From contig CANTFL010001342.1 of NCBI GenBank assembly GCA_947650285.1, positions 124,001 to 188,000 on the forward strand: 64,000 nt of DNA, read 5' to 3'. Source of the stretch: Hyaloperonospora brassicae (Eukaryota > Oomycota > Peronosporomycetes > Peronosporales > Peronosporaceae). The notes below the pieces were generated by a model that made no database searches, had not been told where the DNA came from, and saw only the letters and a list, made by a program, of their open reading frames with translations. Both the position numbers and the translations under genes were made by a program. Shown here in pieces: positions 2,703 to 64,000 of this stretch (positions are counted from its first letter, which is position 1; each line of letters begins with the position of its first letter).

Positions 2703-2706
<4 letters not shown>
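2012..2706. other. Intergenic, no gene seen
   Basis: Between the LTR relic and the first host gene I see no coding sequence with support. Reading frames are short and without recognisable motifs. Confidence 0.5.

Positions 2707-2787
<81 letters not shown>
2707..2787. repeat. (AG)n microsatellite, about 81 bp
   Basis: An uninterrupted AG dinucleotide run. It lies about 180 bp upstream of the start codon of the membrane-protein gene at 2971, so it is probably in its promoter or 5' UTR. It creates spurious Arg-Glu or Ser-Leu reading frames. Confidence 0.98.
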
Positions 2788-2792
<5 letters not shown>

Positions 2793-2970
2793 AGAGAAGA
2801 TAAGGCAAACACTCTTCTGGTCGGACGAGCAGCACCTGTCGTGTTTAGCTTTGCACGTACCGTTACAGAAATAAGCATCACGGCGGCAGAGCCCGTCGTT
2901 TCGGAACCCTATTACACGTACGTTGCACGTCAGTCCGTCGTCGACACGCTTCAGTATCCCTTCGTCCGAC

Positions 2971-33519: not shown

Positions 33520-36500
33520 AGTGACGGCACAGATCAAGTGCAGACGGAGTCTGGGGGACCGACGGAATAAGAGAGAGCGCTAATGGGTTGACGATGGGCG
33601 TGATAAAGAGGATAGAGTCAAGCGGACGCTAACTTGCGCGATAAAGCTGCGGATTGGTGCCGTATCTACATGGAATGACTGCATCTATCACACTGCTTGA
33701 GGTTAAACTGCTCACTGCGTTTTACCCGCTATTCGTCAAGATGTGGTCCCCCTTTTTAGCAGTCTCTTTTCGACCAGCTGGAGGAATTGATTTCACGACC
33801 ATTATTGTCGTTGTGAAAAAGCTGGCGTGTCGTAAAGTTGTTGCTACATGAAGACCAGCGCGAGGGACTGCGACGTGGGACAGTGTTTGCGGACAAGGAC
33901 TCTTCAATTCGGGTCAGTCTGACAAGCGATGATGACACTTGTAAGAACAACCGCCTCACGCGTGCCGACGTAATGACATGTCGCGGCCATTACTTCGACC
34001 GTCGCGACAAACGCATTCCTTGACGTTCCACATGACACGTGCGCACTTTTTACCGCACGTGTCGCTGTTTGCTCCCCGAAGTCGGCCAAAGCAAATGGAC
34101 AGACAAAGATGTCGGTAAGCCATCCCCACGTGTGGTCGGTCTCCCCTTGACGTAGCAGACCGTGTCGGTGGAACAAGTCGGTGCCGGGCGAGGCATCCGA
34201 AGCAGCAGATAGAGTTAGGACGAAGTCGTTGACCATAGAGAGACACTGTTGGTGACTTGTGTTGTCCACTGTACCGGTCGTCGATGGCAAGACGGACGTG
34301 TTGTGTGATACACGGGACCTGATGGACGCGTCACGTGCGTTGAGCGTCTGTCTCCACACTCGTATCTTGTTGCCGGTTTGCACGCCGATGCCTCACATTC
34401 TGTTCATGCTATCAGAGTCTATATGCGATCTATCTATCTGTCTATCTATCGCCTCGCTCGTCGCTCTTCAGACGTGGATGGGACTGGCTCATGGTCCTCA
34501 AAGAAGAGCTCGAGTCGACACTGAGCTCGCTCGTCAATCAGGTCACGCGTTGACACATGCAGCAATCGTCACGTCCTGTCCAAGTGAAGAAGCGCTGCTG
34601 GGTTGAAGGAACTCGCACGTGGTGTAACTCCTGGAGAAACCACAGCCGTGCAGACATGATGCCAAGCAGGGCCAAGACCCGCTTTCCTGCCGTGGGAACT
34701 CGCCGACCCACGCGCTGTTGTTATGGGATGCAATGACGGGCACCACGAGTCGGAGCGTCAAGCACCAACTCGCGACGCCATTAGACTGGTCGACGGGTCT
34801 CCACTGGCAGCACTGCACTGCACTGTACTATCCAGTGCAGTGCTAGTGCTGCATCCGATGGAAACAGTGTCTCTCCTTCGCCGTAGCGGTGGCTGTGTGA
34901 TCGAGATCCAAGGAACAACTGGTAAGCGAACGGAGACCGATCGATGGCAGGTAAGGAACGTGAGAGCTTGGAAGGGCTTCAGCGATCGCACAATGAATGG
35001 GATGGAAAACAATCGTGCGGCTCACCAGTATACGCCTCAAGACGATGGACCAGAACAAGCGATCCGCTGACGGCAGCACTCCTTGTCGCAGCTTACTGCA
35101 ACTGCATGGACCGAGTTCTACTCGTTGCATAAGCTGTCGTTCTTACGCAGCAGACGCAGGTTCGACGTCCGTAGCTTACAAGTGGGTCAACCGGCGAGAG
35201 GGCCGAGAAGAGGACGACGGAGGACGCTGTCGGTGTCGTACGCTCGCTCGCCTTTGTCTGCCTCGTTGCCCAGCAAAGAGCGCAAAGTATGGACACGTGG
35301 GGTGTCATTCCGCGGCTATCCACAACTGCCCCGTAGGTACCTACCAGCGACGCGGCAGAAGAGCAGCTCCGTGCTGTCGATAGGCGCGAACTGATTGCCG
35401 CTCGACGAGATTGATACCGCGCAATCCGCTGTCGACGAACGCAGTCCATGCACACGGCTTTTCCTCGAGTCAGACTCACCACCGAGTCGAAAAGACACCG
35501 TACAAGACACCCTGTCAACTGCACCGCAGCGTCTACACGCAGAGCCCAAAGCGTCCATTAAACGGTCGGCGATTCTCTGTCAATGCCAGGCGTAGCTCGT
35601 TCGTCGCTTGCCGGTTGAGGAGGACGATATGGTGTGCCATCTCACGCATGTCCCAACGTGTAGGCAGGACGGACGTTGTCAAACGATAGCAATGGGGACT
35701 GCCGGCCAGTCGTTTCGCTACTCGTCTGGTGTGCTGTAGATCCGATACAGTCAGAGCGTTCGCGCCGCCCGCTGCGATTTCTCCTCTCTCCGACTGCGCT
35801 CGGCAGCGACGGCAGTCAACTTCACTGGACCTGAACCAGCAGCATACGCCTCCTACCGATCGTCCACTTGTTTCGAGCTCTCAACGACGTGCGTCTGTGC
35901 ACTACGTACCGCTCCGAGTTGCTCCAAGTCGTCGTCACGTCCCGCATGTTCACGAGCGGTGCCGCCTCTTTTGCTGCCGTAGAAAAGGCACACGGCGGCG
36001 GCGGCCCGTCTGGTGCTGAGACCGGACAAACCCCCTGAGCAGATGCACGGGAAGATCGCGTATTGCAGCACATTTGTGTTGACACCTGCCCCGGGCGTGG
36101 ACCATTTGTCTTTCCTTCTCAAGGAGTTCGCTGGGCGGCTTTGCGATCCGTGGCAATGCCGGAGCGAAACGTGGGGCGTCTCGTCTCGGAATGCCGAAGA
36201 CCGCTACTGCCCGAGCGCTCTCCGAGTGAGAAGCTCCTCGATCGAGTGAGCACGAGAGCAACGCCAGCTGTCTGCCGTTCGCTTTACAACACTACGCGGT
36301 GTGAGGTCTCCACGACAGCAGCAACAACGCACCACGCACTGCATCTCCCGCTCTATCTCTGAAGGTCTTCCGACTCACTCGGACGTACAGCAAACCTCTC
36401 CGTGTCGTACTCGCCGAAGAGTCCATTGGCGTAGACAGACGCCCCGTCGCTCGCTCAACTTGCAAAGCAGCTGAGCGCACGCGCAGACTTGTGGTGGCCA

Positions 36501-40996: not shown

Positions 40997-43513
40997 ATGT
41001 CCGCACTGCTGCGCTTCGCCGCATCGGCTCGTGTCCGCTGCCCGCTCGCTGCATGCAGCGCGTTGCCCGCGTCTGCGCGTGCGCCCACGCACCGTCACGA
41101 GGCGCCCACTGACCTTCCCAGCACCACGTCGTCGCTCCAGTACCGCTCGATCTCTCAGTCTGCTGTCTGCATGAAGCGCAAAGGCGGCGCGTCTGCGTTT
41201 GCGCCGAAACCCTCGCGCTGGAACTTCAGCAAAGGCAACAAGAGCCACACCGCACTAAGTACGAAACAGAAGTTGAAGAAAGATGCCGCGCCGCATCGAT
41301 CGCCCGCCGAGCGCACGCGCGCCCTGAAGACAGCGCAGCGCGCGAACGACCGCAACGCGAGAGAGTGGGCAGCGCTCGAGCGCAACGACGAGCTGACGAA
41401 AGAGCTCGACGCGGTGTTTGAGTACCTGGACCAGTCGGGCCCGCACGGCGACTACGTGTACGAGCCGGCGCCGAGTCTCGTGGACGTGGACCACGTCGAC
41501 GCGCTCGACAAACTCAACGCGATCGCCCGTGGCACGTTGCAAGCGCCAGGCAGCAACCCGACCGACGAGGCCGACGGCCCAGCGCCCGCACAGGACCTGG
41601 CGGTCGTCGACTATAACTTTCTCTTGCGCGTGTACGCAGTCAAAGGGCTCCACAAGGAAGCGAACGCGCTCTTGGCACGGATGGAGCGCAACTTGACGCC
41701 GCGGGCAGCCACAGCGGCCGTTGTTGTGCCGGTCGAGCCGACCGACGGGACAGAGCTGGCGCTGCTGACCGCGCTCGAGGCCGTGCCGCACGCTGTCGCG
41801 CCGGACGCCAAGTCGTACATGTTGTACGCGACAGCGCTCGGCGCGAGCGGCCAAGCAGCGCATGCTGTGCGCGTGATTGGCCGCATGAAAGAGCGCGGCG
41901 TGATGCCGAACGTGGCAGTGTACAATGCCGTGATGCGCGTGTGTGCGAGAGCAGGACGCGTGCCCTGGGCCTACACGGTCATGGAGAAGATGCAAGTCGC
42001 TGGCTTCGTGCCGGACCGCGCGTCGTTTACGATCTTGATGAACGCAGCGATCGCGGAAGGGGACCTGGACAAGGCGTTTGAGACGTTCCACTTGATGCGG
42101 ACGCACGTGGCCGAGCCCGATGAAGTGGCGTTTAGCTGTTTGATCCACGGCTTTGCCCGAGAAGGACGGGTCGAGCGGGCGCTGAATTTGCTGGAAGATT
42201 TGCTCTCGTGCGGCCTCACGCCGTCGCTCGTGACGTTCAATGCGCTCATGAACGCGTGCGCCAAGTCGCACTACTACGCCCACAAAGCGATCGACTTTTA
42301 CTATGAGATGCAAGAGCTGTACGACTATACGCCGGACTTGTACTCGTACGGGACAGTGCTGCACGCGTGCGCGAAGAATGGGGACTTTATCCAGGCCGAG
42401 CAGATTCTCCGGCACATGGACCGCCACCACGTTCCTATGACGGAGTATGTGTACAGCACGTTGTTCAATGTCTACGCTCGCGCTCAAATTAGGACGATTG
42501 TGGACAAGGCCCCGCGCAATGCAAAGGCTTTGGCCAAGCCCGAGCCGGTGTACCAGGAGCCTCTCGAGTGGGACGATGAGGGCAAAGAAGTGGATTTGAC
42601 GCGTCCAGGCAAGGAAACGTTTTCGCTCGAGAACGCCAACTACGACGGGAGTTTTGACGATGGTGATGGAGACGAAGACGAAGAAGTCGAGGCGTACAAG
42701 CTGAGTCCTGAGGCTTTGGCTCAAGTGGAGGAAATGCGTCAGCAGGATCACGCCGATCGCAACGTGCAGAAAAAGACGACGGAGTCGACAGAAGTGGTCA
42801 GAGTTGAGCAGACGATGGAAGTTTACGGCGAGCAAGACCGTTTGCTTTTCGCTGACAGCGAGGAGTCGCATAATTTTGAGCTGACGCCAATGGATCTGAC
42901 AAACTTTGGCAAGTACCAGACGCTCAATATCAAGCGTGCGGAAGCCCGCTTTCACGAGATGACCTTTGACAACGGCCTCCAGCCATCTCTGGTCACGCTG
43001 AACTCGATGCTTGCCGTGTACTCGAACGCGCTGCGTCTGCGCTCAGCAGAGACGTTTATGAACGAGACGTATACGAAGTTTGGTTGTCGACCCAACAAAT
43101 TCACGTACCGATCCATGATGCAAATGTACGTCCGTGCGAAGCGAACGACGCAGGCTGAACAACTACTCGAGCGTGTACGAAGTGAGATTGAGGACGGCGA
43201 TCTGGAGGCCGATGCAGTGACGTTTGGTATCTTGGTGGATCACTACGCTAGAAAGGGTCTCGTACGACGCGCGCTGGCGACTCTCGAGGACGCTGACGCT
43301 CTAGGACTGCAAATGCAAGAGAAGCATCTGAAGAAGATTCGTGTGTTGACGGAGAAGTATGGAGTTTTCTCTGACCTCATTCCAGAGGACCCGGACGCTG
43401 TGCTGCTTGCTGGTTCGCGTCACAAATTGATGGCGAAGCGCAAGGTCCGTGCGCAAGCGTTGGAGTATACGCGCAAGGTTGGGAAACGCTATTTGTTGCC
43501 GGAAAGGAATTAG
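40997..43513 (+). CDS. Pentatricopeptide-repeat protein, probably mitochondrial
   Basis: Single exon, 838 aa, start at ATG 40997. The first 40 residues (MSALLRFAASARVRCPL...) are rich in Arg, Ala and Ser without acids, as in a mitochondrial presequence. PPR motifs are evident from about 190 to 500: DYNFLLRVYAVKGLHKEANALL, VAVYNAVMRVCARAGRVPWAY, ASFTILMNAAIAEGDLDKAFE, VAFSCLIHGFAREGRVERALN, LVTFNALMNACAKS, LYSYGTVLHACAKNGDFIQAE. A charged insert of about 130 residues follows (540-640), then three more repeats (LVTLNSMLAVYS, FTYRSMMQMYVRAKRTTQAE, VTFGILVDHYARKGLVRRAL). PPR proteins bind organellar RNA sequence-specifically; here the likely role is mitochondrial RNA processing or translation. 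No DYW, SMR or endonuclease domain is seen. Confidence 0.92.
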   Translation: MSALLRFAASARVRCPLAACSALPASARAPTHRHEAPTDLPSTTSSLQYRSISQSAVCMKRKGGASAFAPKPSRWNFSKGNKSHTALSTKQKLKKDAAPHRSPAERTRALKTAQRANDRNAREWAALERNDELTKELDAVFEYLDQSGPHGDYVYEPAPSLVDVDHVDALDKLNAIARGTLQAPGSNPTDEADGPAPAQDLAVVDYNFLLRVYAVKGLHKEANALLARMERNLTPRAATAAVVVPVEPTDGTELALLTALEAVPHAVAPDAKSYMLYATALGASGQAAHAVRVIGRMKERGVMPNVAVYNAVMRVCARAGRVPWAYTVMEKMQVAGFVPDRASFTILMNAAIAEGDLDKAFETFHLMRTHVAEPDEVAFSCLIHGFAREGRVERALNLLEDLLSCGLTPSLVTFNALMNACAKSHYYAHKAIDFYYEMQELYDYTPDLYSYGTVLHACAKNGDFIQAEQILRHMDRHHVPMTEYVYSTLFNVYARAQIRTIVDKAPRNAKALAKPEPVYQEPLEWDDEGKEVDLTRPGKETFSLENANYDGSFDDGDGDEDEEVEAYKLSPEALAQVEEMRQQDHADRNVQKKTTESTEVVRVEQTMEVYGEQDRLLFADSEESHNFELTPMDLTNFGKYQTLNIKRAEARFHEMTFDNGLQPSLVTLNSMLAVYSNALRLRSAETFMNETYTKFGCRPNKFTYRSMMQMYVRAKRTTQAEQLLERVRSEIEDGDLEADAVTFGILVDHYARKGLVRRALATLEDADALGLQMQEKHLKKIRVLTEKYGVFSDLIPEDPDAVLLAGSRHKLMAKRKVRAQALEYTRKVGKRYLLPERN

Positions 43514-46328: not shown

Positions 46329-47415
46329 TTGCACGCAAACCATTGTTGATATTGGCACATGCTGAGGGTTTCCAAATGCGACTAAATGTTTACTCAACGC
46401 GCGACTTTCTTTGCTATTTTGTTTCACGAATGTTTGGCTCCAGATGCATCAAGAACGGCTCATCGGCGCCAGATAAAGTCGGGTGTGGCCGACTCGTTCC
46501 TTCGTGTTGTGGAAGTCAGAGTCACCCGACAGCCTTTGCAATGGTAGGATGGCACATCCGCGTGGCTATAGGGTATGTACAACGTACAGTGTTACGTAAC
46601 CGACGACTTCAACCTGTATTGGGGTGAGGTCAGCAGTAGCCCTTATCTTAACGAGTGTGTATTGAAAGTCGATACTGTTGCTCGATTCAACCTGACAACG
46701 TGCTAAGCAAACGCCCATTTGCTGAGGTGGGTGAACTCCTTCCAATCAAAACTTGTTGGGTGCACCAACCGGACGGCGTATTTGGTCAGCTGTTACTGCT
46801 TCGGCTGCACCGATACGACTGGCTCTCGATTATCTCTCAGATCTACAGCAGTTCCTCACTGGATGTCCTTGCCTTCATGCTTTGGTAATCCATCAGCACA
46901 GTGTCTTGCACGAGACACAGAGGGAAAGCATATCGATCTAACATGGGTACTGGCACCCCCTGCTTTGCCTTTTTTACCTATAACGCGGCGTCGTTTTGGG
47001 TCCGTTTGCTTTTGTTGCAATGCCTATTTGCTGACGCTTCAATGTATGATCTTTATTTCTGCAGAAGTAGGCTGAGAGGTAAGAAATCGACGGAAGAAGA
47101 GACGGGAAAGGTGATGGTCTTCCGTGAGACCAAATTGAGTCATTGAGAAATTGTTTGACGCACGGGTCGCTCTCGAGGCGTCGCTGAACACTTTTTGAGT
47201 GGCACTGTCGCCTAAGTGCGTACGGACCAGCCGGAAGATCACCGTTTTCGACTAAAACGGCTCACCGCCAACTGCTTCGTGCCGCTCAGGGGGGGTAAAT
47301 TATCTGCACGGTAGGTCCATGCGCAATTGAACAACCTGTACGCGTTTATAGAGTCGAGCAGCTCATAAACGAAAGCCTTACGCCCAAGTTTCTCAAGCGT
47401 TACTATACATTAGTG
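46329..47415. other. Intergenic, no gene seen
   Basis: About 1.1 kb between TBCE and the Gypsy insertion. Short frames only. Confidence 0.5.
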
Positions 47416-47420
47416 CTTAC
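47416..47420. repeat. Target-site duplication CTTAC (left)
   Basis: CTTAC directly precedes the 5' LTR and is repeated at 55396-55400 directly after the 3' LTR. A 5 bp duplication is normal for Gypsy integrases. Confidence 0.9.
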
Positions 47421-47806
47421 TGTAACGGGGCAGCCCGTTACATGATATTGTCACTTAAGGAAAGTGACAATAAAGAATATAAGATGGATATTCTTTAAAC
47501 AATATCACCAAAGTGGTGATATTGAAGGGTCGACCAAAGGGTCTGTTCATTGGTTGATATCGTGATGATATCAACCCACCAATCGCCGCAAGACGCGCGC
47601 AATGAGTGGTGACGAGACGTCACCATACACTCAGTTATATTAGTATAATTAAGTTAAGTCAAACGAAGAGACAGTAGTTATAGACTTAATTTATTAATAT
47701 AACAGTTCTACTTTACCCTACCTACGCTTCCTCGCTCGCCACGTGTACGTCCGTCGGGGCACCCAAATCCCTTGCGTTAAGTTACGCAAGGGTGTGCCCC
47801 GTTACA
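47421..47806 (+). repeat. 5' LTR of element E
   Basis: 386 bp, TG...CA, with a perfect 12 bp terminal inverted repeat (TGTAACGGGGCA and TGCCCCGTTACA), longer than the 2-6 bp usual for LTRs. It is a chain of short hairpins: arms at 47421/47434, TTGTCACTT around 47448-47472, CAATATCACC around 47499-47524, TTGATATC around 47552-47572, TGGTGACG near 47608-47627 and CCCTTGCG near 47769-47793. Confidence 0.95.
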
Positions 47807-47808
47807 CC

Positions 47809-47826
47809 TGGTAGCACTTTGTAGTC
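47809..47826 (+). other. Putative tRNA primer-binding site
   Basis: TGGTAGCACTTTGTAGTC begins two bases after the 5' LTR, the usual place for a site complementary to a tRNA 3' CCA end. A similar TGGTAGCC..TTTGTAGTC follows the LTR of element A. The tRNA species was not identified. Confidence 0.55.
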
Positions 47827-47850
47827 CTTCCAAGGACCACATCATCCAAC

Positions 47851-49006
47851 ATGAACATGTTGGATGAAGAAGACACCTTTCACGCCACGCGTGAAGGGTT
47901 TACCCATTTGAGTGACATTGAATGGGGTGCGGTAGAACGAATGAGTTCTACCGTAGGCGAACTCGTCGTCAGCACCATGTTGGAGTCTCTAGACAGAGAC
48001 CAACAACATGCTGCTATCGCCAAGTTCATTCACAATGAACTTGTCGCCGAAAGGGGAGAAAGTAGCCTTGCTTCAACAGCAAGGCTCTCAACAGGCCGAG
48101 CACTTGAAAGAACCCGGTGCTCAACAGACAGAGCTGTTGAGACAGCAGCAATTCCATGCTGCTGTGGGCGGGACGGCACATGCGCGTCGTCCCGAAGTGA
48201 TGAAAGTCGACATCTCCAAGTACAGTGGAGTCCCGGAGGACTCCCTGTTACTATGGTTTGTCGAACTCGACAGAGCCCTAAGGTCTCGTCGCGTCGAAGA
48301 TGAGCAAATGAAACTCACATTTGCTCAGACCCACTTGGCAGGGCGTGCCAAAACTTGGTCCCTGGGACTCGAGAGTAGCGACCCAAATGTGTTTAGGTCG
48401 CTAGATGACTTCAAGTCCCGGCTCAGACAAACGTTTGAGCCGCCACGTGCTGAGTTCAGGGCTCGTTCAGAGCTCCTGAAACTCAAGCAGGGTAAGCGTG
48501 ATGTGCACGCTTACGCACAACATATACGACTCCTTGCGAGTAGTATAACTGCAAACCCAGTCCATGAACACACGTTGATTACGGTATTCATGCAAGGGCT
48601 CGCAGAAGGGCCCGTCAGGAGCCACCAGTTCCGCCTTGAGCTGAATACGCTGGAAGATGCGATATCAGCCGCGGAACAGGAAGATTTTAGCATGAGACAT
48701 ACTCATGCTAGCTCAAACTCTTACCGTCCACCGAGACGACAAGCGATCGGAGGTCCAGAACCAATGGACCTCTGTTATGTTGAGAGCGAGAGACCTCGCT
48801 CTACAAGCAACAAGCGATTGCAGAGGTGCAATCGCTGTCAGAAGTTAGGGCACTACGCATACGAGTGTAGTGCTCCGCGCCCAGTACCAAACAGTACTGA
48901 GCGAAATGGACGACCATTCACCAAGAAGGGCAATGGGCGTGGGTCCAGCGCTGTTGAGAAACCGCAACAGCGAGACGGGCCATCAAAAAATGGTCGGGGT
49001 CAGTAG
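47851..49006 (+). pseudogene. gag: gag of element E (one frameshift)
   Basis: Starts at ATG 47851 (MNMLDEEDTFHATREGF) and reads to about 48050 in one frame, then continues in another frame to the TAG at 49006. The switch is at the AAAGGGGAG run near 48047-48055 and fits a one-base gain. The protein is a Gag: a helical capsid-like core (WFVELDRALRSR, AKTWSLGL, LKSRLRQTFEP-type block, QGKRDVHAYAQHIRLLASSI, ITVFMQGLAEGPVR) and a zinc knuckle near 48829-48872 reading CNRCQKLGHYAYEC (CX2CX4HX4C). A basic Gly/Arg tail follows. Gag forms the virus-like particle of the retrotransposon. The G-run location means a sequencing or assembly error is also possible. Confidence 0.85.
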
Positions 49007-49056
49007 GGGCGGAGCGCCCTACTGATCCAGCAACCTCAAGAGAATTTGCAAACCTC

Positions 49057-52000
49057 TTGACGAAAGTTGCTCCAGATACACAATCATTGTGTGTCTCTGC
49101 ACCTGGTGATGACGTTTCGCTCATCACCTTGAAGTTGGAAGCGACAAATGACTTGTCACTTCGTGCCCTAGTAGACTGTGGGGCGTCGAACAACTTTGTT
49201 CGTCGCCAGTCACTAGAGGGTCGTAGGCTCAAGTTCGTTGAGCGCGACATTCCCCCTCACAAGGATGACGGTGCGCCTTGCAACAGGCGCATCGATAACC
49301 GTTGAGAAACGTGTAGTAGGAATCCACTACACGTTAGAGGGCGAGCAGTACGATGATGACTTCATCGTACTAGATCTGGATGACAAATTTGATGTCATCC
49401 TGGGATTACCTTGGCTCAGAAAATACGAGCCAAGGGTGAGCTGGCAGCATCGATCCGTGAAGATGCCTGCTGCTTGTTCATCAGATGGCCATCTGATGAA
49501 CATCTTGGAGCGTCCACAAGCGTGTGGATGTTCTGCGAGTGAGTGCGATGGCCTCACTTGCGGTACGGTCGTTAGCACGACTGCACAAGGTCACAGTGTA
49601 GTTGATCACTACACTGTGGAGCAAGCTCCCGGCGGCTGTACAGAAGTACAGGCTGCGCCGAAGGTCCACCACTCGAATAAGTCGAGTGGACCGGGACATG
49701 GATGCATGCCTAGCGGGCAGCATCTTAGAAGAAAGAAATCTGTTGCCCCCAAGGGGCAACATGAAAATTTAGGTCGACTGGAGAGTCGACCGTAGAGGAT
49801 CGGTTCCTGACTGTGGTTGCACAGCCACAGTCGGAAGACGTCGAGGGAATAAGTCCCCACGTACTTGAGGAAGGAGTTCCTCAAGAGTTGCTTGCTGAGG
49901 GATCAGGCCCTCAGCAACCTGTGGAAGCAAGATCCCAGGAAGAAACCGAGACGTTGAACGTCTTGGTTAATGACGGATCAAGCGTAGGCATTTATACGCT
50001 TGATCTGATTGTGTCTCCGAAGTTGACTTCGGAGATAACTCAGTTGCCAACGCTAGAACCGAAACGGTTCTTGCGTGATCTGCGTAGTGGCAAAGTCAAG
50101 CAGATCTGCGTACTCGTCACAGAGGACGAGTATGTGACCGACATTCGGTCGGCAACAGTATTTGCTGAGAACGAACGGGTTCTCAGCAGCTCATCGATGG
50201 ACGAAAGTGTCCTCGATGAGAAGACTCGGATTGAGCGATACGCGTCCCAATCCTGGGAGTCACTTCAGGCAAATCCTTTGTATAAGGATTTGATCGAATT
50301 CAGGGATGTGTTCCCTGAATCCGTACCTTGCGAGTTGCCTAATGGACAAAGGCACTCGACACGAGATCGAGCTCAAACCGGGCTCGAAATACTGTGTCAT
50401 GAAGCAGTGGCCACTGCCTCGTGAACAAGTGATAGCGATCGACAAGTTCTTTGCCGATCGCTTAGCAGCAGGCCATGTGAGGGAATCAACATCCCCTCAC
50501 AGCTCTCCGACCTTCTGTGTGCGAAAGGCCACAGGAGGGTGGCGGATAGTGCACGCATTCAACAAGTTGAATGCTGCAACGGTACCGGCTCAGACGCCGA
50601 TACCGAGGAAGGACGTAATCATAGATGGTATGTCAAAGAGTACCATCTTTTCGTCCATGGATCTGATGGATGGATTCTATCAGATCCTGATGCGTGAACG
50701 TTGAATCCCATTCACGGCAGTGAGCACCCCCAGCGGGATGCTGTGGGAGTGGCTAGTGATGCCACAGGGGCTGAGTAATGCCCCTGCAACATTCAACAGA
50801 TGTGTAACAAATCTGTTGAGACCGGTGCGGGACTTCGCACCGAGTTACTTCGACGATGTGTTCGTCCATAGCCGGGCTATGGACGGAAAGACGGACGTTG
50901 AAGTTCACAGAACTCAAGTTCGTCAGGTTCTCCAACTTATGCGCAAGCATAAGTTGTACGCCAACCTCAAGAAGTGTATATTCGCGGCTAGCGAAATACC
51001 ACTTCTTGGGTGCATCGTGGGGAAACACGGCGTACGCCCTGATCCCGAAAAGATCAAGGCGATCACCGACTGGCCAGTGCCAGTCGATGTCAAGGGACTT
51101 CGAAAGTTCCTTGGTCTTGCGGCGTACTTGCACAAGTACTCGCGCAACTACGCCGAGATGACGGTACATCTTTCTTGCTTGCTCAAGAAAAATGTCAAGT
51201 GGTCATGGAACGCTGAGTGCCAGCGTTCCTTTGAAGGTATCAAGCAAAGCTGGATGCAATCGCCGATCTTGGCGATTGCAGATCAGGACAGACCATTTCA
51301 TGTGGTCTGTGACGCCAGCGATTTCGCAATCGGCTGTGCGTTAATGCAGTTCGATGCAGATGGCGCGGAGCGCGTCATCTGTTATCAATCGCGTCAGCTG
51401 CAAGCAGCTGAGCGTAATTACCCAGTGCATGACAAGGAACTCCTTGCCATGAAATACGCACTGGCTAAATTTCGCGTCTATCTCTTGGGAGATAGACCGT
51501 TTGTTGTCTACACGGACCATGCGTCATTACGCACGGCCGTAAACAGCCCACACCTCTCGCAAAGAATGGCGAGGTGGCTGTCTTTCTTCGCGGAGTATAA
51601 CTTCTCCGTGGAGTATAAACCGGGACGACTCAATGTCGTCGCGGATGCTCTTTCGCGCCGGCCCGATTTCGAGCCGGACGCGCAATCCAACAGTGAGGAC
51701 AAGCCCACTGTTGCGACTCTGTCAGTCAGTGTCCCGTCGTCAAGTAAACTTGAAGACGTACGAAAGGCATACGCGGAAGATAAGGATCTTCTGCGATTGA
51801 TGGATCATCTGGTGAATCCATCCAGTAAATCCATGAGGGATTTACCGGCTTTGTACCGATCCTCATCGGATCGGTATAGTACACGCAACGGATTGCTGTA
51901 CTATACAGCTGTTGCCGACGACACGCCTCGTGTCGTCGTACCCGCTCATCATGATTTGCGATTGCGCATCATGTATGAGTGTCACGATGCCCCAACAAGC

Positions 52001-53901
52001 GGCCATCGTGGTAGAGAAAAGACTTACCTCACGGTAAGTCGCGACTTTTACTGGCCCCGCCAGTATCAGTTTGTTCGCAAGTACATCCGTGCTTGCGAAG
52101 TATGTCAACGGGTGAAGCCTAGTCCTTCATCCCGTGCGCCATTGCAGCCTCTGCCTGTTCCGACAGAGTGCTGGCAGTCCGTTTCAATGGACTTCGTCTT
52201 CGGGTTTCCCGAAGACGCTCACAAGAATAATGGTATTCTTGTGTTTGTGGACCGATTCAGCACGATGGTCCATCTTGCTGCTGTCCCTGAGTCAATCAAG
52301 GCTCAAGGTTGTGCTCGTGTCTTTCTAGACACGGTCTTTAGACTCCACGGGTTACCCCGTGAACTCGTATCCGACCGTGACCCTCGGTTCACGGCGGAAT
52401 TTTGGCAAACCGTGTTCCGTACTCTCGGAACACGATTGAAGATGTCCACTTCTGACCATCCAGAAACAGATGGTCAGACGGAACGTGCGAACCGTGTCCT
52501 CGAAGAGATTCTTCGAGGATATGTCCACTCGTTTCCGAGTTGGAGCGAATTCCTACCCATGGTGGAATTCGCCATCAATAATTCGGTGCATGCTTCAACA
52601 CAGCACACACCGTTTTACGTGAATGGCCTACGCCATCCACGTGTGCCCACCCTTCTAGAGTGTGACTCTTGGATAAGGGGGGAGGGACTCGCTCGAGCAA
52701 AAACCGTTTTGGCTCTTGCTCATCACGTGTCGACGCAAACGTCGTCACGTATGATGCCGATGTCGATCAAGTCGACATCGATGAAGAAGATCATCTCAAT
52801 AATAGCGAAGACGCTATTATTGATTCGGATGATGATGACGATGCTGGTATATTCAGCATCGTCAACGATTATGCCAGCGAGGAAGAAGACAACCTCGCTG
52901 AAGAAGAGAGCAATCTCTTAGCAGTGCGTACGAAGCGCACTGCTAGACAAAACAAAGAGTCAGCAGAGAACTTCCTGCTGACTCGAGAAGCGGTAGTCCG
53001 TTTCGTTCAGGACTCCATCGCAAATGCGGTGGACCGTCAGAAACGGAACGCAGACAAGAATGGAAGAGCAAATGTTCTTTCATTTAAGGTTAATGACCTA
53101 GTACTACTGTCAACGGTAAACCTACCTGGACATGCAGTCACTAGTGTCGGCAGTAGTAAACTACTGCCGAAATACATTGGGCCATTTCGAGTGTTGCATC
53201 GCAAGGGCAATGCATACACACTCGAATTGCCACGTAGGATGCGCACGCATCCTACGTTTTACGTGGGGAGGCTTAGGTCGTACTGTCAGTACGAGCCTTC
53301 TTCTTCCGATGAAGATAGCCCCCACGTTCAAGAACATCCATCAAGTTCTTGCGTTCGCGCTCCAGACGATCCGTCTGGTCGCGCAGATATGATACCTCGG
53401 AACTCAACCGAGTTATCTCTCCGCGAGCTGTCGCCAGCTCGCCGAAAAGGGAGCGGACATCCCGCTCGACCTGAAGCTGCGCCGTGGCATAATCGGCGCG
53501 ATCCCTCGCCCGATCAGCCTCGTGATCCTTGCGGTTCTTCCGCACGGTGTCGGTCAAAGCGTAGCGTCGGTCGCGTTCGTGCTTCAAGTCATCGCGCAAT
53601 TCATCGATTGCGCGATCCATCTCATAAGGGTCGAGATGGTGGGCCTGGGGTTCTGGAGGAGGTCTTTCCTCCTCCACCACAATCTTTGGTGGATGCTCAC
53701 GGTGATCAACGCTTTCTAGTGGAGCGTATCTTGAATCACCGTGACGATTCAGGATCAAGGACGAGCTACCTCGTCCAGTGGCGGGGGTATCCACCCTCTT
53801 GGAACAGCTGGGAGCCCCGCTCTCAGCTGTTAATGGATGTTGAAGGTCTCGTCCACCAGTATGACGAGACCCATCCGATGAGTCCTGTGGCCCATCGGTA
53901 A
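49057..53901 (+). pseudogene. pol: pol of element E: PR-RT-RNaseH-INT-chromodomain, broken
   Basis: Domains in order: aspartic protease (ALVDCGASNNFV near 49165-49200), reverse transcriptase (about 50330-50990; catalytic YFDD at about 50846), RNase H (about 51280-51660; CDASDFAIG, YTDHASL), integrase zinc finger (HX..H..CEVC, about 51946-52120) and core (about 52170-52520; SMDFVFGF, SDRDPRF, NRVLEEI giving D-D-E), and a chromodomain (about 53713-53880; FLVERILNHR, YLVQWRGYPPSWNSWEP). Breaks seen: frame changes near 49255, 49780, 50330 and 52680 (the last in a six-G run), and a TGA at 50702-50704 just upstream of the STPSGMLWEW block. The RT, RNase H and integrase frame from 50720 to about 52680 is intact. 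The stretch 53273-53901 is also covered by the antisense ORF on the other strand. Pol copies element RNA and inserts it; the chromodomain steers insertion to chromatin. Confidence 0.9.
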
Positions 53902-54877
53902 ACACGTGCCCTAGGCGCTTGTAGACGGATTGCAAGTTTGCAATCGCGTCACGCATCTCGTCCGAGAGATGTGCCCTTCCCCAGGGCGAATTTAGGGAGT
54001 ACACATCCCTATGTGCACGCTGCGAGTTGTCAACACAACTCGCACAAGGTTCTCCCCATGTGAGGCAAGGAATGCCTGCCTCACTCGATAAACAATGCAA
54101 CCGGTACCTAGCACCGGTTGGCGTTCGCCGTTCGAACCTGAGGCGTGTTGCCTCAAGTTTCTTGAGCCACCCTTCTCGTCCAAAATTCTTTACGTTTTGG
54201 ACGAACGCGTTCCACGCAGCCAAAAGCGATGTTTTGTCACGCTTTTGGTTGCTATTGTACCATTGATGTCTAAGGAAGACATCGAGATAAAAGTCTTCTT
54301 CAGCGCGAAAGTTCTTCGCGCTGGGACTCAAGCCGTGTAGCTCGGTTGCATCGAATAAGGGTATTCGATGGTGTTGGCCTGTCTCGTGAGACAGGCTATT
54401 GATGAGTTGTTCGGGCAAACGCCACGGCTTCAACTCATCACGCTTCACAGTGGTACCCTTGTCGGTGCCACGGCTCCCAGATTGACGACGGCTCGCTCCA
54501 TCGTCAACACGCTCGTGCGAAGACGCACGAGCCGGCGGTGGTGAAGAATAGAGCTCACCACCCTGATCATCGTCATCACTGCCGAACAGACTGTGATGCG
54601 AATCACGAGTCCGTTCGTTCGGCAGTGGCCTTGGCGAATACTGAGGCGTCGCCGGTGAGCGAGACGCCTCTGGAGCATTGCCCGAGTCAGACACGTCTGA
54701 CTCGCCAGAGTAGATGACCTCCACATCGGGGTCATCATACGCACGCGGCGTGATACCGCGTGCACCTGCAGCACCTGTTGCTGCAGGCGAAGAAGGGTCG
54801 GCAGACGACGAAGCGTCTGCCGCAGAGGCTTGCACAGCACCAGGCTGTGTGGGTCTTGAGTCACCTCGCATAGACAT
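53273..54877 (-). CDS. Antisense ORF of the Gypsy element, 534 aa, unknown function
   Basis: An uninterrupted minus-strand frame with a true ATG at 54877 (MSMRGDSRPTQPG), running opposite to gag-pol at the 3' end of the element. Residues 1-150 are Ser/Ala/Asp-rich. Residues about 185-330 form a compact, aromatic- and Cys-containing block (EEDFYLDVFLRHQWYNSNQK, LLAAWNAFVQN, RRTPTGARYRLHCLSS, then CLTWGEPCASC). Residues about 425-520 are a strong coiled coil rich in Arg, Glu and Leu. The same protein is encoded, with substitutions and breaks, in the second copy at 63003-64000, so the frame has been kept by selection at some time rather than by chance. Its last 210 residues overlap the pol chromodomain region. 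Antisense ORFs are known in some plant Gypsy elements; I do not recognise this protein. Expression is unproven. Confidence 0.7.
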   Translation of the reverse strand: MSMRGDSRPTQPGAVQASAADASSSADPSSPAATGAAGARGITPRAYDDPDVEVIYSGESDVSDSGNAPEASRSPATPQYSPRPLPNERTRDSHHSLFGSDDDDQGGELYSSPPPARASSHERVDDGASRRQSGSRGTDKGTTVKRDELKPWRLPEQLINSLSHETGQHHRIPLFDATELHGLSPSAKNFRAEEDFYLDVFLRHQWYNSNQKRDKTSLLAAWNAFVQNVKNFGREGWLKKLEATRLRFERRTPTGARYRLHCLSSEAGIPCLTWGEPCASCVDNSQRAHRDVYSLNSPWGRAHLSDEMRDAIANLQSVYKRLGHVFTDGPQDSSDGSRHTGGRDLQHPLTAESGAPSCSKRVDTPATGRGSSSLILNRHGDSRYAPLESVDHREHPPKIVVEEERPPPEPQAHHLDPYEMDRAIDELRDDLKHERDRRYALTDTVRKNRKDHEADRARDRADYATAQLQVERDVRSLFGELATARGEITRLSSEVSYLRDQTDRLERERKNLMDVLERGGYLHRKKKARTDSTT

Positions 54878-54995
54878 GTTAGCTATGCGAGGTCAAGCGG
54901 AAAGTGAGTGGAACGGACCAAACAAGTACTCCCTGTCCCAATGGTGGCCAACGGGTGGCCTCCATATTTCGATAGTCATACGGTGACTATCAGTT

Positions 54996-55004
54996 AAGGG
55001 GGGG
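54996..55004 (+). other. Polypurine tract before the 3' LTR
   Basis: AAGGGGGGG, three bases before the 3' LTR, is the expected plus-strand primer. The same tract (as CCCCCCTT) lies beside the LTR at 62872-62885 of the inverted copy. Confidence 0.8.
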
Positions 55005-55007
55005 TGA

Positions 55008-55395
55008 TGTAACGGGGCAGCCCGTTACATGATATTGTCACTTAAGGAAAGTGACAATAAAGAATATAAGATGGATATTCTTTAAACAATATCACCAAAG
55101 TGGTGATATTGAAGGGTCGACCAAAGGGTCTGTTCATTGGTTGATATCGTGATGATATCAACCCACCAATCGCCGCAAGACGCGCGCAATGAGTGGTGAC
55201 GAGACGTCACCATACATGCAGTTATATTAGTATAATTGAATTAAGTCAAACGAAGAGACAGTAGTGTAAAGACTTAATTTATTAATATAACAGTTCTACT
55301 TTTACCCTACCTACGCTTCCTCGCTCGCCACGTGTACGTCCGTCGGGGCACCCAAATCCCTTTCGTTAAGTTACGCAAGGGTGTGCCCCGTTACA
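55008..55395 (+). repeat. 3' LTR of element E
   Basis: 388 bp, nearly identical to the 5' LTR. Differences noted by eye are a few substitutions (around ATACATGCAG, ATTGAATTAA, CTTTCG), an altered AGTGTAAAG stretch and one extra T in TTTTACCC. Confidence 0.95.
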
Positions 55396-55400
55396 CTTAC
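55396..55400. repeat. Target-site duplication CTTAC (right)
   Basis: Matches 47416-47420. Confidence 0.9.
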
Positions 55401-55683
55401 TGATAGGGACAAAACAGCTCGTGTTAAATGATGTACTGAGAGATGCCGTCTCTCCGAGGACGAATTGACCTAAACTATTTTATCAGACAAAAAGAATGTT
55501 AATCTGGATGGACCACTTGCATCCCAAAGCTGTTTGGCACCATTTGATAACACTTTTTTTGGACTCAGAGATAATTAATTACATATTACACAAATAACAC
55601 CCAAGCTCCGACATCTACGACAAAAGATGAGTCGCTTGTAGTTTTCTCAAATTTCACCCAAGCTCCGACATCTCCGACGAAGA

Positions 55684-57530
55684 ATGAGTCTGGCCACCCT
55701 CGCATCTACCAATACGAAGCGTGCTCGTGAGAACGCAGCACGCTCGATTTTGAAGTTCCTCGAGGAGGAGGAGGTTAGTTGGGACTACCTGCAGCAGTGC
55801 ATGCAGCGCGAGAGGGCGCCTCTCGTCTTAGAAGCTGTTGTGGACAAGCTCGGCATGTATCTCGAGTTCACGGACGGACGAAAGGGACAGCTTTTAGCTC
55901 GACACTCGGTCATGCAGTACTTTCGACTGGCCAGGAACTGGATGTTGGAACAGTTTCCACAGCATCGAGCAGCGGTCGACACGAACCTTCTTCAGAATGG
56001 ACAGACGCTGGAACGCCATTGCATAAAGCGTGTGTCAGGACCATTTGTGAACAAGGCCCCAGCATGCACAAAGTCGGCTCTCAAGAAAATGATGGAGTAC
56101 TTGTATCCCACTGCGGTTACAGGTGCTGACTACCAATATGCGGCGCTGTTGTGCCTGCTTTGGTTCCTCTTTAGTCGCGCGTCGGACCTCACAATGCTGC
56201 GGAAGGCTAGCTGATCTATTGGATCGGGCGACAAATTCTTCGTCCGTTTTATCCGCATCAAGACTTCGGAAGAGCAAGGTCGGTCGCTCTTCCCCAACGA
56301 AGACTACGACACGTGTTCTCTGCTTGCCATTGCACTAGCCCTTGTGACCCACGCATCACCAATAATTTCAGTGCTGAGCCAACTTCCTAAGCAGTAGGCT
56401 GTTTTGCAGTCCACGTAGGCACCGGCAACTCCGCTCATCGATATGCTTGATTACCAGAGGTTGTGGTGTCTTCGCAGGATACGTCTTCCGCCGCTGCAAA
56501 GATGAAAAACAGTCCAGACAACGCCCCCGGTGTTCACAGCTACGTCAACCATGTTCTTGATCGGTAAAAGCAGGTGTATCCGAGCGCTTGACATCTCACT
56601 TTTTTTTGGCGTGGAGAGGCGCAGCATACGAATGGGGCTGGGTTGTGTGTACAGTGGGTCTTCGACCGAGGGGCTTGGAACATAACACCGACGAACAAAC
56701 CCTTCGCTTATGTCTATAATAAACCGTCCGAAGACCATAAGGTTGCTCAGGTCTTAGGTGGGCGACACCCTGACACATTCGTCTCGCTTCTTTTGATCGA
56801 TGTCTTCGATTCCGGTACTAAGACAAAGTTTCAGGCTGTTGCGACAGCGCTTTTCGACGCGTCTCACGGCTTAGCGACTCTACAGTACGTTGTGAGCGTA
56901 AGGTTGCGTGAAACGCGTATCACTTACTTGCTGCTTCATTATCCATCATTGAAGCGTATCAAAATGAAGGACTTGTGGTCACACGTCTAGAAGCGTGCGT
57001 CATCCGGCAAGGTTATTCCACCAACGAGCTTCTAGCTTGGTTATCGCATCTAGCCTGCAACATGAAAACAAGTCTGCAAACAAACCCCATAAAGGCTTAA
57101 GAAAGATCGAGCAACGTAACAAAACATTCATTATTTCTCAATCAAGCCGCCTTGATTGAACAACTTATTAGGCTGAACCACAAGCTCGACTCTCGCATTT
57201 TTATTGTGGAAGCTACAGTATACAACAAGGAACAGCCTAAAGATACACACGAGAGAATGAGGCTACAATCGATTAAAAAATCAGCAAAACGACGCCGAAC
57301 GAGTACAGTAACAAACCTGAAGGACGTATGGTTCTTCTGGTATGCTCAGGAACCCGAGTCTGGGGTGAGTCTGATAGCTTCAGCAAGCACACGAGATACA
57401 CCGGCAAACTGGTGGCTGCTTATACGAAGCTTTTCTTGCTGATAATTTCGTGCTTGACGAGAAATTTCCGCAGTATCTTGACGCTGTGTTAACGATTGGC
57501 GATGTCGCCGAGATGAGGTTACTGTAGATT
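55684..57530 (+). pseudogene. Crypton-type tyrosine recombinase, decayed
   Basis: A first frame (55684-56214) from ATG reads MSLATLASTNTKRARENAAR and continues through KFLEEEEVSWDYLQQCM to LLCLLWFLFSRASDLTMLRK, the fold and Arg-containing box of oomycete Crypton tyrosine recombinases. It ends at a TGA, but the sequence goes on in another frame (GDKFFVRFIRIKTSEEQG then LFPNEDYDTCSLLAIALALV). A third block (56643-56990) has DRGAWNITPTNKPFAYVYN and SEDHKVAQVLGG, and a fourth (57152-57442) has QLIRLNHKLDSRIF and NLKDVWFFWYAQEP, all in the order expected for this family. At least three frameshifts or stops make it non-functional. Cryptons move as DNA by a recombinase of this kind without terminal repeats, so the ends cannot be set. 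The repeated CCAAGCTCCGACATCT just upstream (about 55603 and 55660) may be part of it. Confidence 0.75.
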
Positions 57531-62478: not shown

Positions 62479-62871
62479 TGTAACGGGGCACACCCTTGCG
62501 TGAACTTAACGCAAGGGCTTTGGTGCGCCCGACAGACGTACACGAGGCAAACGAGGAAGCGTAGATAAGGGAAAAGTAAAACTGTTATATTGATATAATT
62601 AAGTCTATAACCACTGTCTCTCTGTTTGACTTAACTTAATTATGTTAATATAACTGAGTGTATGACGACGTCTACTCACCACTCATTGCGCGGGTCTTGC
62701 GGCGATTGGTGGGTTGATATCGTCAAGATATCAACCAATGAGCGGACTCTTTGGTCGACCCATCAATATCACCACCATTGGTGATATTGTTCAAATAATA
62801 ATCAACTTAATATTATTTATTGTCACTTTCCTTAAAGTGACAATTTCCATGTAACGGGCTGCCCCGTTACA
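62479..62871 (-). repeat. 3' LTR of a second, inverted Gypsy copy (element D)
   Basis: 393 bp. On the minus strand it starts TGTAACGGGGCAGCCCGTTACA and ends TGTGCCCCGTTACA, as in element E, with the polypurine tract beside it (62872-62885). The element therefore continues to the right past the window end, on the minus strand. It is clearly more diverged from E than E's two LTRs are from each other. Confidence 0.9.
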
Positions 62872-63002
62872 TTACCCCCCCTTAACTGATAGTCACCGTG
62901 TGACTATCAAAAAGATGGCGGCCACTCATTGGGCACCATTGGGACAGGGAGCACTTGTTGAGTCCGTTCCATTCACTTTCCACCCGACCTCGCATAGTTA
63001 AC

Positions 63003-64000
63003 ATGTCTATGCGGGGTGACTCAAGACACGCACAGCCCGCTGCTGTGCCAGCCTCTGCGGCAGACGATTCGTCGTCTGCTGCTCGTTCTCCGCCTGCAGC
63101 AAGAGGTGCTGCAGGTGCACGCGGTATCAGCACCGCGTGCGCATGATGACCCTGACATTGAGGTCATCTATTCTGGAGGGTCAGACGTGTCTGACTCGGA
63201 AAAGCCTTTGGAGGCATCGCATTCACTTGCGGTGCCTCATTCATCCACGACACTGCAGGACGTACGGACTCGTGACATGTGTCACAGTCTGTTCGGCAGT
63301 GATGATAAGTCTGATGATGAGTATGATTGCTCATCACCGCGATCAACTCGTGCTCCTTCGCACGATTGACTTGACGATGGTGCAAGCCATCGTCATACTG
63401 ACAACCGTGGTACCGACAAGGGTACCAATGTGAAGCGTGATGAGCTGAAGGCGTGGCGTTTGCCTGAACGGCTCATCAATGGATTGTCTTACGAGACAAG
63501 CCAACATTATCGAATACCCTAATTCGATGCGACTGAGCTTCACGACTTGAGTTCCAGCGCGAAGAACTTTCGCGATGAAGAGGATTTTTATATCGATGTC
63601 TTCTCTAGACGTCGATGGTACAACGGCAACCAAAAGCGGGACAAAGCCTCGCTTTTGGCTGCGTGGAACGCGTTCGTCCAAAACTTAAAGACTTCGGACG
63701 AGAAGGGTCGCTCAAGAAACTTGAGGCGGTACCCCTCAAGTTTAAAAAGCGAACACCAACCGGTGCAAGGTACCGGTTGCATTGTTTGTCGAGTGAGGCA
63801 GATATTCCTTGCCTCACATAGGGAGACCCTTGTGCGAGTTGTGTTGACAACTCACAGCGGGCACCTAGGGATGTGTACTCCCTAAGTTCGCCCTGGGGAA
63901 GGGCACACATCTCGGCTGAGATGAGTGACGCGATTGCCAACTTGAAATCCGTCTACAAGCGCCAAAAGCGCGTGTTTACCGATGGTCCCTCGGACCTATC
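63003..64000 (+). pseudogene. Antisense ORF of element D, broken, truncated by window edge
   Basis: Starts at ATG 63003 (MSMRGDSRHAQPAAVPASAA) and follows the antisense protein of element E through at least three frame changes: DDPDIEVIYSGGSDVSDSE (from 63140), TVKR-like KGTNVKRDELKAWRLPE (63420), then SSAKNFRDEEDFYIDVF and LLAAWNAFVQN (63550-63690) and RRTP-like KKRTPTGARYRLHCLSSEA (63750-63810). There is also a stop near 63522. The parallel with 53273-54877 at protein level, over about 300 residues, is the main evidence that the antisense frame is a real gene of this family. Confidence 0.75.

What the first reader, a model, noticed from the sequence alone, without database searches (positions are those of the whole stretch)
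47421..55395. A retrotransposon tiled end to end with short hairpins, coding sequence included
Reading the element, I find one short inverted repeat after another, mostly with arms of 8-13 bp and loops of 0-8 nt, often back to back. Checked by hand: 47421-47442 (arms 9), 47930-47953 (9), 48064-48086 (8), 48120-48141 (8), 48142-48165 (9), 48301-48327 (10), 48376-48403 (8), 49476-49501 (a perfect 26 bp palindrome), 49592-49618 (11), 49977-50004 (10), 50864-50884 (10), 50933-50956 (10), 51916-51938 (10), 52220-52243 (10). The pattern runs through LTR, gag, RT, integrase and the antisense ORF, so thousands of bases satisfy protein coding and local self-complementarity together. Host genes in the same window do not show it. 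I know of no description of such a palindrome-tiled retroelement. It could mean a genome-wide RNA fold (packaging, protection from degradation or silencing), a mutational process such as template switching at hairpins during reverse transcription, or protein- or DNA-level selection for cruciforms.
Basis: seen in the sequence. Interest (0 to 1): 0.92.

Follow-up and report, generated by a model that had tools for sequence, protein, structure and literature searches.

The report
Retrotransposon tiled with short hairpins
A jumping element in a downy-mildew-like microbe is built, genes included, from about 135 short self-pairing hairpins that evolution keeps intact, and a sister element in the same genome does the same with hairpins about half the size, for a reason not yet known.

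Summary
The Ty3/Gypsy chromodomain retrotransposon at 47421-55395 holds 73 perfect inverted repeats (arm >=8, loop <=8) in its internal part; dinucleotide shuffles give 0.9. Host DNA is at chance. A tolerant scan finds 140 hairpins covering 42% of LTRs, gag, pol and antisense ORF alike. RNA folding is about 47% more stable than shuffles on both strands; the highest vertebrate RNA virus in the passages read reaches 23%. Stems are maintained: against an 88%-identical sibling, synonymous change is 3-fold lower in stems than between them, and 16 of 21 double changes keep pairing. Stem mismatches show no G-U preference in this family, so a sense-RNA fold alone is a poor explanation. A sister Gypsy family in the same genome (61% pol identity) is tiled too, with 5-bp stems and mostly 3-4-nt loops at other positions. 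Four Copia loci and five other loci show no clear excess. I read this as a structure maintained for the single-stranded forms of the element, its size set family by family. Packaging, shielding from silencing, or templated hairpin repair by the reverse transcriptase: undecided.

The parts
47421..55395 (+). Ty3/Gypsy chromodomain LTR retrotransposon, tiled end to end with short hairpins
   Evidence: LTRs, Pfam domains, hairpins
47416..47420 (.). target-site duplication CTTAC, 5' side
   Evidence: read directly
47421..47806 (+). 5' LTR, TGTAAC...GTTACA, with 6 non-overlapping hairpins
   Evidence: differs from the 3' LTR by 6 substitutions and 2 gap columns in 389 columns
47993..49006 (+). gag reading frame with Retrotrans_gag and zinc knuckle; 11 perfect hairpins against 0.29 in codon shuffles
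48958..50424 (+). protease region of pol, in alternating frames in this copy (frame-broken here; other copies have open frames of 1339 aa or more over the RNase H domain)
50294..52921 (+). RT, RNase H, integrase; 18 perfect hairpins against 0.43 in codon shuffles of 50333-52639
   Evidence: Pfam for 50720-52921; alignment to the sister family from 50345 on
52666..53901 (+). integrase C-terminal SH3 (PF24626) and chromodomain (PF00385)
53273..54877 (-). antisense ORF, 534 aa, with homologues elsewhere, no fold match; 15 perfect hairpins against 0.5 in codon shuffles
49475..49502 (.). longest perfect palindrome, 28 bp (arms 14)
52758..52984 (.). example of dense tiling: five perfect hairpins with arms 9-12 in 227 bp, downstream of the integrase core
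54741..54822 (.). three near back-to-back perfect hairpins (arms 8, 9, 9) inside the antisense ORF
54996..55004 (+). purine run before the 3' LTR (candidate polypurine tract)
   Evidence: read directly
55008..55395 (+). 3' LTR
55396..55400 (.). target-site duplication CTTAC, 3' side
   Evidence: read directly
62479..64000 (-). start of a second, older copy (locus L031: 90.8% identical over 8.0 kb, its LTRs 96.2% identical to each other), also hairpin-rich (32% coverage over the copy)

Best explanation
SHOWN: a chromodomain Ty3/Gypsy retrotransposon of a Peronosporaceae-like genome carries about one short hairpin per 57 nt over its whole length (usual stem 8-10 bp, loop 2-8 nt, unit 22-26 nt), and pairing is maintained across replication cycles while inserted copies tend to lose it. 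A sister family keeps its own, shorter hairpin (5-bp stem, mostly 3-4-nt loop). INFERRED: selection maintains pairing, with a benefit that saturates at a family-specific stem length, and it acts on single-stranded forms made in each cycle (genomic RNA, antisense RNA and/or cDNA). Every stretch then folds on itself, so the strand is compact for packaging by the family's own Gag and poorly available for pairing with antisense or small RNA. Most of the confidence is in selection for structure; packaging versus shielding is close to open (the shielding rival below overlaps with this statement).
For: Density far above every shuffle, codon-preserving ones included. Stem change against L062 (88.0% identical over 6.8 kb; its LTRs 98.2% identical, so mostly differences between active lineages): 134 of 2305 stem sites against 540 of 3874 between hairpins, p=8e-25; similar when hairpins are taken from L062 (129 of 2217 against 545 of 4016). 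Synonymous rate 0.088 in stems, 0.281 between, 0.337 in loops. 16 of 21 double changes at Watson-Crick pairs keep pairing, p=7e-5; 15 of 22 in the reverse comparison. Sites where the window base is found in fewer than 10% of the 36 close copies: stem 3 of 1412, between 36 of 2252, loop 12 of 339. Stem/between ratio of variant rates over up to 60 loci: 0.85 (in 1 locus), 0.66 (2), 0.67 (3-5), 0.51 (6 or more); shared against single p=0.03; 0.36 for changes common to L033 and L038 (14 of 635 against 55 of 898). AT-rich stems are longer, rho -0.285, p=0.0008. L062 LTRs have hairpins of largely different sequence. Sister family: 134 hairpins (arm >=5, loop 3-8) against 25.6 in mononucleotide shuffles; synonymous rate 0.168 in stems against 0.320 between; 10 of 15 doubles keep pairing; excess of stacked pairs up to a pair distance of 13. 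Hairpin centres of the two families coincide 3, 6 and 3 times in three comparisons against control means of 1.3-1.5 (control maxima 5, 5, 6).
Against: No G-U preference in this family: shared stem mismatches 12 A-C, 10 G-T (my tally of the list); WC+GU 114 against WC+AC 116 hairpins of arm >=8, though 19 against 12 at arm >=12, and host DNA gives 82 against 111; pooled A-C 59, G-T 37. In the sister family single changes run the other way, G-T 45, A-C 28 over two comparisons. Pairs free on both sides change at 12 of 66 sites against 254 of 1012 between hairpins (p=0.24, L062 and L075), so full neutrality there is not excluded. No transcript, small-RNA or probing data were available. The size set-point is unexplained.
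Confidence: 0.5

Rival explanations
1. Templated palindrome repair: during reverse transcription the growing strand folds back and copies itself over a short, enzyme-specific length, so imperfect hairpins are continually turned into perfect ones; coding selection removes bad outcomes.
For: Explains perfect pairing without G-U preference, even spread over LTR, coding and antisense regions, family-specific size and compensatory doubles. Doubles are seen at both-fourfold pairs (2 of 11 pairs against L062, 2 of 22 against L075) while fourfold sites with a constrained partner change little (16 of 284 against 105 of 473 between hairpins, L062).
Against: No clear arm polarity against the outgroup L073: left arms 137 of 340, right 124 of 337, between 405 of 1054; amino acids 46 of 111, 38 of 106 and 124 of 354. 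Of 118 hairpins fully aligned to L062, 9 have 3 or more changes in some arm, and 2 of these have them in one arm only. Over all seven comparisons, which reuse the same pairs, both-fourfold pairs change at 18 of 168 sites against 543 of 2825. Other Gypsy and Copia loci tested do not show it, which an enzyme-specific process could still allow.
Confidence: 0.2
2. Shield against RNA silencing: sense and antisense transcripts, and small RNAs cut from them, fold on themselves and cannot pair with each other.
For: Both strands fold equally. The unit (median 24 nt) lies near the 20-22 and 24-26 nt small-RNA classes bound by Phytophthora infestans AGO1 and AGO4, and AGO1 binds small RNAs from Gypsy elements (PMC6284064, passages). 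An antisense ORF with homologues elsewhere suggests antisense transcripts. The family is abundant.
Against: The sister family's 5-bp hairpins would protect little. No small-RNA data here. Transition mismatches get no more tolerance than transversions in stems (43 to 35 single changes, against 282 to 243 changes between hairpins).
Confidence: 0.2
3. DNA-level selection: cruciforms or hairpins in the double-stranded element or in single-stranded cDNA.
For: Near-strict Watson-Crick pairing and strand symmetry in this family.
Against: Arms of 5 bp do not form stable cruciforms (general knowledge). Mutations found in a single inserted copy fall in stems at 0.85 of the rate between hairpins, close to neutral.
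Confidence: 0.1
4. Ordinary sense-RNA structure as in structured RNA viruses, with G-U pairs tolerated.
For: Folding excess of 47%; A-rich loops at all three codon positions; G-T above A-C in the sister family and at arm >=12 here (19 against 12).
Against: No G-U excess among shared stem mismatches in this family: a 3:1 preference would give 10 or fewer G-T among 22 with p=0.003. Loops in the antisense-only region are not A-rich (A 23, T 21).
Confidence: 0.1
5. Chance, base composition or assembly artefact.
For: None found.
Against: Shuffles; all 30 loci L001-L030, from many contigs, have 10.25-11.75 such repeats per kb.
Confidence: 0.005

Closest known systems
[quoted passage not shown] passages found by search terms were read, including from the abstracts)
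   Same: Many short local stem-loops through coding sequence; folding energy far below shuffles; paired sites less variable; paired runs over 14 bp avoided (the longest arm here is 14).
   Different: The folding excess here is about 47% against 15% for SARS-CoV-2 and 23.4% for the highest vertebrate RNA virus named there (other fragment size and shuffling program, so only roughly comparable); stems are near-perfect and of a family-specific length; no G-U preference in this family; LTRs are included; pairings are conserved at 88% identity; and it is a retrotransposon.
Structured genomic RNA of yeast Ty3 and Ty1, and HIV-1 (PMC11381356; abstract and one section read)
   Same: LTR retroelement RNA with local structure; stable, highly structured regions make up to 30% of Ty1 and Ty3 RNA.
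   Different: Mosaic of structured and dynamic regions with special sites, not uniform tiling with one hairpin size.
Dispersed packaging signals of small RNA viruses (recalled, no call)
   Same: Many stem-loops spread over a genome and read by the coat protein.
   Different: Those share a loop motif; the loops listed show no common one by eye.
Rickettsia palindromic elements and mitochondrial double-hairpin elements (recalled, no call)
   Same: Palindromes within coding sequence.
   Different: Those are inserted repeats of shared sequence; here the hairpins differ in sequence and run through Pfam domains.

Membership tests
Ty3/Gypsy LTR retrotransposon, chromodomain-bearing | gag, protease, RT, RNase H, integrase in this order, integrase followed by a chromodomain | tested here: met
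   Pfam matches in order
Ty3/Gypsy LTR retrotransposon, chromodomain-bearing | LTRs with TG...CA ends and a short target-site duplication | tested here: met
   LTR pair, TGTAAC...GTTACA and CTTAC on both sides
Genome-scale ordered RNA structure | folding energy clearly below dinucleotide shuffles across the genome (threshold 3% in PMC3950689) | tested here: met
   mean 47.5% on +, 46.3% on - in 26 windows each; L062 47.2% in 27 windows
Genome-scale ordered RNA structure | paired sites less variable than unpaired sites | tested here: met
Genome-scale ordered RNA structure | individual pairings poorly conserved between relatives | tested here: inconclusive
   98 of 119 alignable window hairpins shared with L062 at 88% identity, but centres nearly independent of the sister family at 61% pol identity
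Genome-scale ordered RNA structure | acts as folded sense RNA (so G-U pairs should be tolerated; this criterion is my own, not the papers') | tested here: inconclusive
   no G-T excess over A-C among shared stem mismatches in this family; the sister family leans to G-T
Genome-scale ordered RNA structure | structure present in the RNA in cells and linked to evasion of host sensing | not testable with these tools
   needs probing and expression data

The most novel reading that the evidence does not exclude
A clade of oomycete chromodomain retrotransposons has evolved a second, shape-based code over its entire sequence: every stretch is built as a hairpin of a family-specific size (about 24 nt with 8-10 bp stems in one family, about 13 nt with 5-bp stems in its sister), independent of sequence, position, strand and coding, read or made by the family's own Gag or reverse transcriptase.
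Probability: 0.4. Interest if true: 0.95.

Novelty: new variant of a known kind. Interest (0 to 1): 0.88.

Why it matters
It would be the most strongly structured protein-coding sequence that I know of (a recollection, not a survey), with thousands of bases serving proteins and near-perfect local palindromes together. Two families in one genome with different hairpin sizes make the cause testable: selection with a size set by Gag, silencing or stability predicts one thing, templated repair by the reverse transcriptase another. If selection, it extends genome-scale structure from RNA viruses to retrotransposons; if templated repair, it shows an RT-driven mutational process shaping whole elements.

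Tried and rejected
Protein-level test for other species: counting places where codon choice could give arms of 9 or more, the window pol scores 1.70 times shuffles and 120 homologues average 1.42; 8 host ORFs score 0.68-1.15, 4 Copia ORFs 0.89-1.38, gag 1.79, SH3-chromo 1.29, antisense ORF 1.52. By genus the means run from 1.23 (2 Aphanomyces) and 1.26 (17 Globisporangium) to 1.47 (64 Phytophthora) and 1.65 (3 Peronospora). But the sister family, which lacks long stems, scores 1.26-1.47, so I draw no conclusion about other species from it.

Homologous pairing in the sister family: 142 of 337 window pairs are complementary in L073 against 0.19-0.28 at other offsets. This is no more than the roughly 61% of shared bases alone would give, it does not fall off with distance from the loop, and centres hardly coincide; rejected as shared structure. 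My first reading that the sister family has no hairpins was an effect of the 8-bp threshold and was dropped.

Periodic spacing: none seen. Codon register: 40, 37, 21, the register pairing third with third positions rarest, p=0.04, but that register is the commonest of 34, 37, 42 in the sister family, so not used. Minus-strand polarity: A-C 59 to G-T 37, p=0.03 uncorrected; the pool joins the shared mismatches, variants in 3 or more loci and single changes against L062, and leaves out L031 (A-C 30, G-T 34); it is reversed in the sister family; not used. Rfam: 0 matches in 47000-56000 at gathering thresholds. IMG/VR and GTDB contigs: pattern matches but no confirmed relative. Structure of the antisense ORF: mean pLDDT 54, no PDB match at E<=0.001.

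Literature on such elements: the searches (15 of 117 papers listed) listed no paper whose title or shown start of abstract describes a palindrome-tiled retrotransposon; this covers only the open-licence library, those terms and what was listed.
Full report
WHAT IT IS. The stretch 47421-55395 is an LTR retrotransposon with TGTAAC...GTTACA LTRs and CTTAC target duplications. It carries gag (PF03732), aspartyl protease, RT, RNase H, integrase with an SH3-like domain, and a chromodomain, so it is a Ty3/Gypsy chromodomain element. A 534-aa antisense ORF lies at the 3' end. The PPR gene at 40997-43513 is closest, among named entries, to Peronospora matthiolae (84%), then to other Peronosporaceae, so the host is a downy-mildew-like oomycete. 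The genome holds at least 40 copies at about 99% over 1 kb, and all 30 loci cut for the best RT_RNaseH matches (150 scored) match the window element at 90-99%.

THE OBSERVATION. All 14 listed hairpins are there. Perfect inverted repeats number 73 in the internal part against 0.88 in dinucleotide shuffles, while host DNA is at expectation. Codon-preserving shuffles give 0.3-0.5 per region against 11-18 observed. A tolerant scan gives 140 hairpins covering 42% (135 without the second LTR). Counted without the second LTR, 15 of 16 bins of 500 bp hold 7-11; the last, cut at 55007, holds 2. Placement is random. Stems peak at 8-10 bp: the chance of one more pair is 0.82 after 7 pairs, 0.33 after 10 and 0.25 after 12. 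The unit is 22-26 nt (quartiles). Folding is 47% below shuffles on both strands; four Copia loci are between -3.3 and 1.7%.

MAINTENANCE. L062 holds a complete sibling element with its own LTRs, 98.2% identical to each other, and 88% identical to the window element over 6.8 kb. It has 136 hairpins covering 40%; 98 hairpins are shared, 21 alignable ones are only in the window copy and 15 only in L062 (21 and 23 could not be aligned). Stems change at 5.8%, stretches between at 13.9%, loops at 17.0%; taken from L062, 5.8, 13.6 and 15.1%. Synonymous sites: 0.088, 0.281 and 0.337. Double changes at Watson-Crick pairs keep pairing in 16 of 21 (15 of 22 in the reverse comparison). Variants found in one of up to 60 loci are nearly as common in stems as between them (ratio 0.85); shared ones less (0.66, 0.67 and 0.51 for 2, 3-5 and 6 or more loci; 63 stem and 171 between variants in 3 or more loci against 400 and 768 in one, p=0.03). 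Of six loci aligned over most of their length at 90-95% identity, L034, L035, L036 and L045 have 30-34% coverage, while L033 (40%) and L044 (42%, part of the L062 element) have kept theirs; L001 has 44%. So pairing is kept in replicating lineages and lost passively in many old copies. AT-rich stems are longer, as expected if stability is what counts.

STRAND. Selection on a sense RNA should tolerate G-U. Stem mismatches shared by the close copies are 12 A-C and 10 G-T (my tally of the list; window-only ones and those with no data in the close copies left out). Hairpins of arm 8 or more allowing G-U number 114 and allowing A-C 116; at arm 12 or more 19 and 12; host DNA gives 82 and 111 at arm 8. 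Pooled counts are 59 A-C to 37 G-T, and variants in one locus, taken as neutral, 96 to 103. Against symmetry, loops are A-rich on the + strand (A:T 215:143 against 1074:1009 between hairpins, p=0.003), at every codon position, though not in the antisense-only region (23:21). I conclude that the level, sense RNA, both RNAs or DNA, is open.

THE SISTER FAMILY. Query P0112 brought a second Gypsy family (L073-L076, open frames of 1299-1606 aa; about 61% identical in pol to the window element for the three tested). By the 8-bp criterion it has almost no hairpins, but its RNA folds 13-16% below dinucleotide shuffles on + and 18-22% on -, and 15.1 and 17.3% below codon shuffles for L073. The L073 ORF has 135 hairpins of score 5 or more against 44 in codon shuffles, 55 against 14.5 at 6 or more, and 5 against 3.9 at 7 or more. 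A host ORF in the same test has 44 against 32.8, 18 against 10.9 and 4 against 3.4, a mild excess; the window RT-IN 63 against 20.6, 47 against 6.4 and 41 against 2.6. L073 is tiled with 5-bp stems (109 of 134), mostly with 3- or 4-nt loops (97 of 134): 134 in 6.0 kb against 25.6 in mononucleotide shuffles, with excess stacked pairs up to a distance of 13 and near background from 14. Its stems are conserved too: L075 114 of 1399 against 608 of 3999, p=4e-12; L076 42 of 1404 against 255 of 4068; doubles keep pairing in 10 of 15 and 2 of 3. Hairpin positions in the two families are nearly independent. Four Copia loci (0.96-1.44 times shuffles), three loci found with a protease model (L077-L079, not identified further, 0.93-1.20), a distant Gypsy-like locus (L080, 27% pol identity over 176 columns, 1.19) and L081 (0.72) show no clear excess. 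So the trait is seen in two related families, with a size that differs by family.

MECHANISM. Shown: tiling, maintenance in replicating lineages, family-specific size, presence in coding and non-coding parts. Inferred: selection on single-stranded forms, with benefit saturating at the family's stem length. I put packaging by Gag and shielding from silencing close together; the family-specific size favours a protein of the element, the small-RNA-like unit length of this family favours silencing. Templated hairpin repair by the reverse transcriptase is the main rival; the test that could separate it (pairs free on both sides) gave 12 of 66 against 254 of 1012 for the two most divergent sibling comparisons, p=0.24, and 18 of 168 against 543 of 2825 over all seven comparisons, which reuse the same pairs: leaning to selection, not decisive.

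KNOWN RELATIVES. The nearest known phenomenon is genome-scale ordered RNA structure: 15% for SARS-CoV-2, 7.5-10.7% for HCV and 23.4% for the highest vertebrate RNA virus named in PMC7642675 (passages), with a threshold of 3% in PMC3950689 (passages). Those values were computed with other fragments (350 bases in the first paper) and another shuffling program, so the comparison is rough. Yeast Ty3 RNA is mosaic-structured (PMC11381356, abstract and one section). The element looks like genome-scale structure by energy and by conservation of paired sites, but I do not file it as a member, since action as folded sense RNA is not shown and the mismatch counts of this family do not support it.

Noticed in passing
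window 53273-54877 (-): Antisense ORF with ten homologues at 31-84% identity (one named, Peronospora matthiolae): low-confidence N-terminus, helical middle part, a helix of about 100 residues, basic tail. No Pfam match over its cut-off and no fold match.
   Followed up: partly
window 48958-52921: This copy has its pol in several frames with a stop before 50705, while other copies show open frames of 1339 aa or more; the window copy is broken although its LTRs differ at only 6 sites and 2 gap columns.
   Followed up: no
L062 (C781:545600-554400): Complete sibling element with longer LTRs (about 447 bp); 96.3% identical to L002 over element positions 2500-4200 (as L044) but 88% to the window element overall, which suggests recombination between families.
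   Followed up: partly
L033 and L038: Two copies 96.0% identical to each other and 94.2 and 92.7% to L002, with a shared rearrangement: element positions 2083-2208 followed within 10 nt by 2492-2498 onward: a further subfamily.
   Followed up: partly
window 55586-55690: Two 48-nt direct repeats (83% identical), starts 57 nt apart, just downstream of the element.
   Followed up: no
window 34815-34843: An isolated perfect hairpin (arm 11, loop 7) in otherwise hairpin-poor host DNA.
   Followed up: no
L073-L076: In the sister family the antisense strand folds more strongly relative to dinucleotide shuffles than the sense strand in 4 of 4 loci (18-22% against 13-16%).
   Followed up: partly
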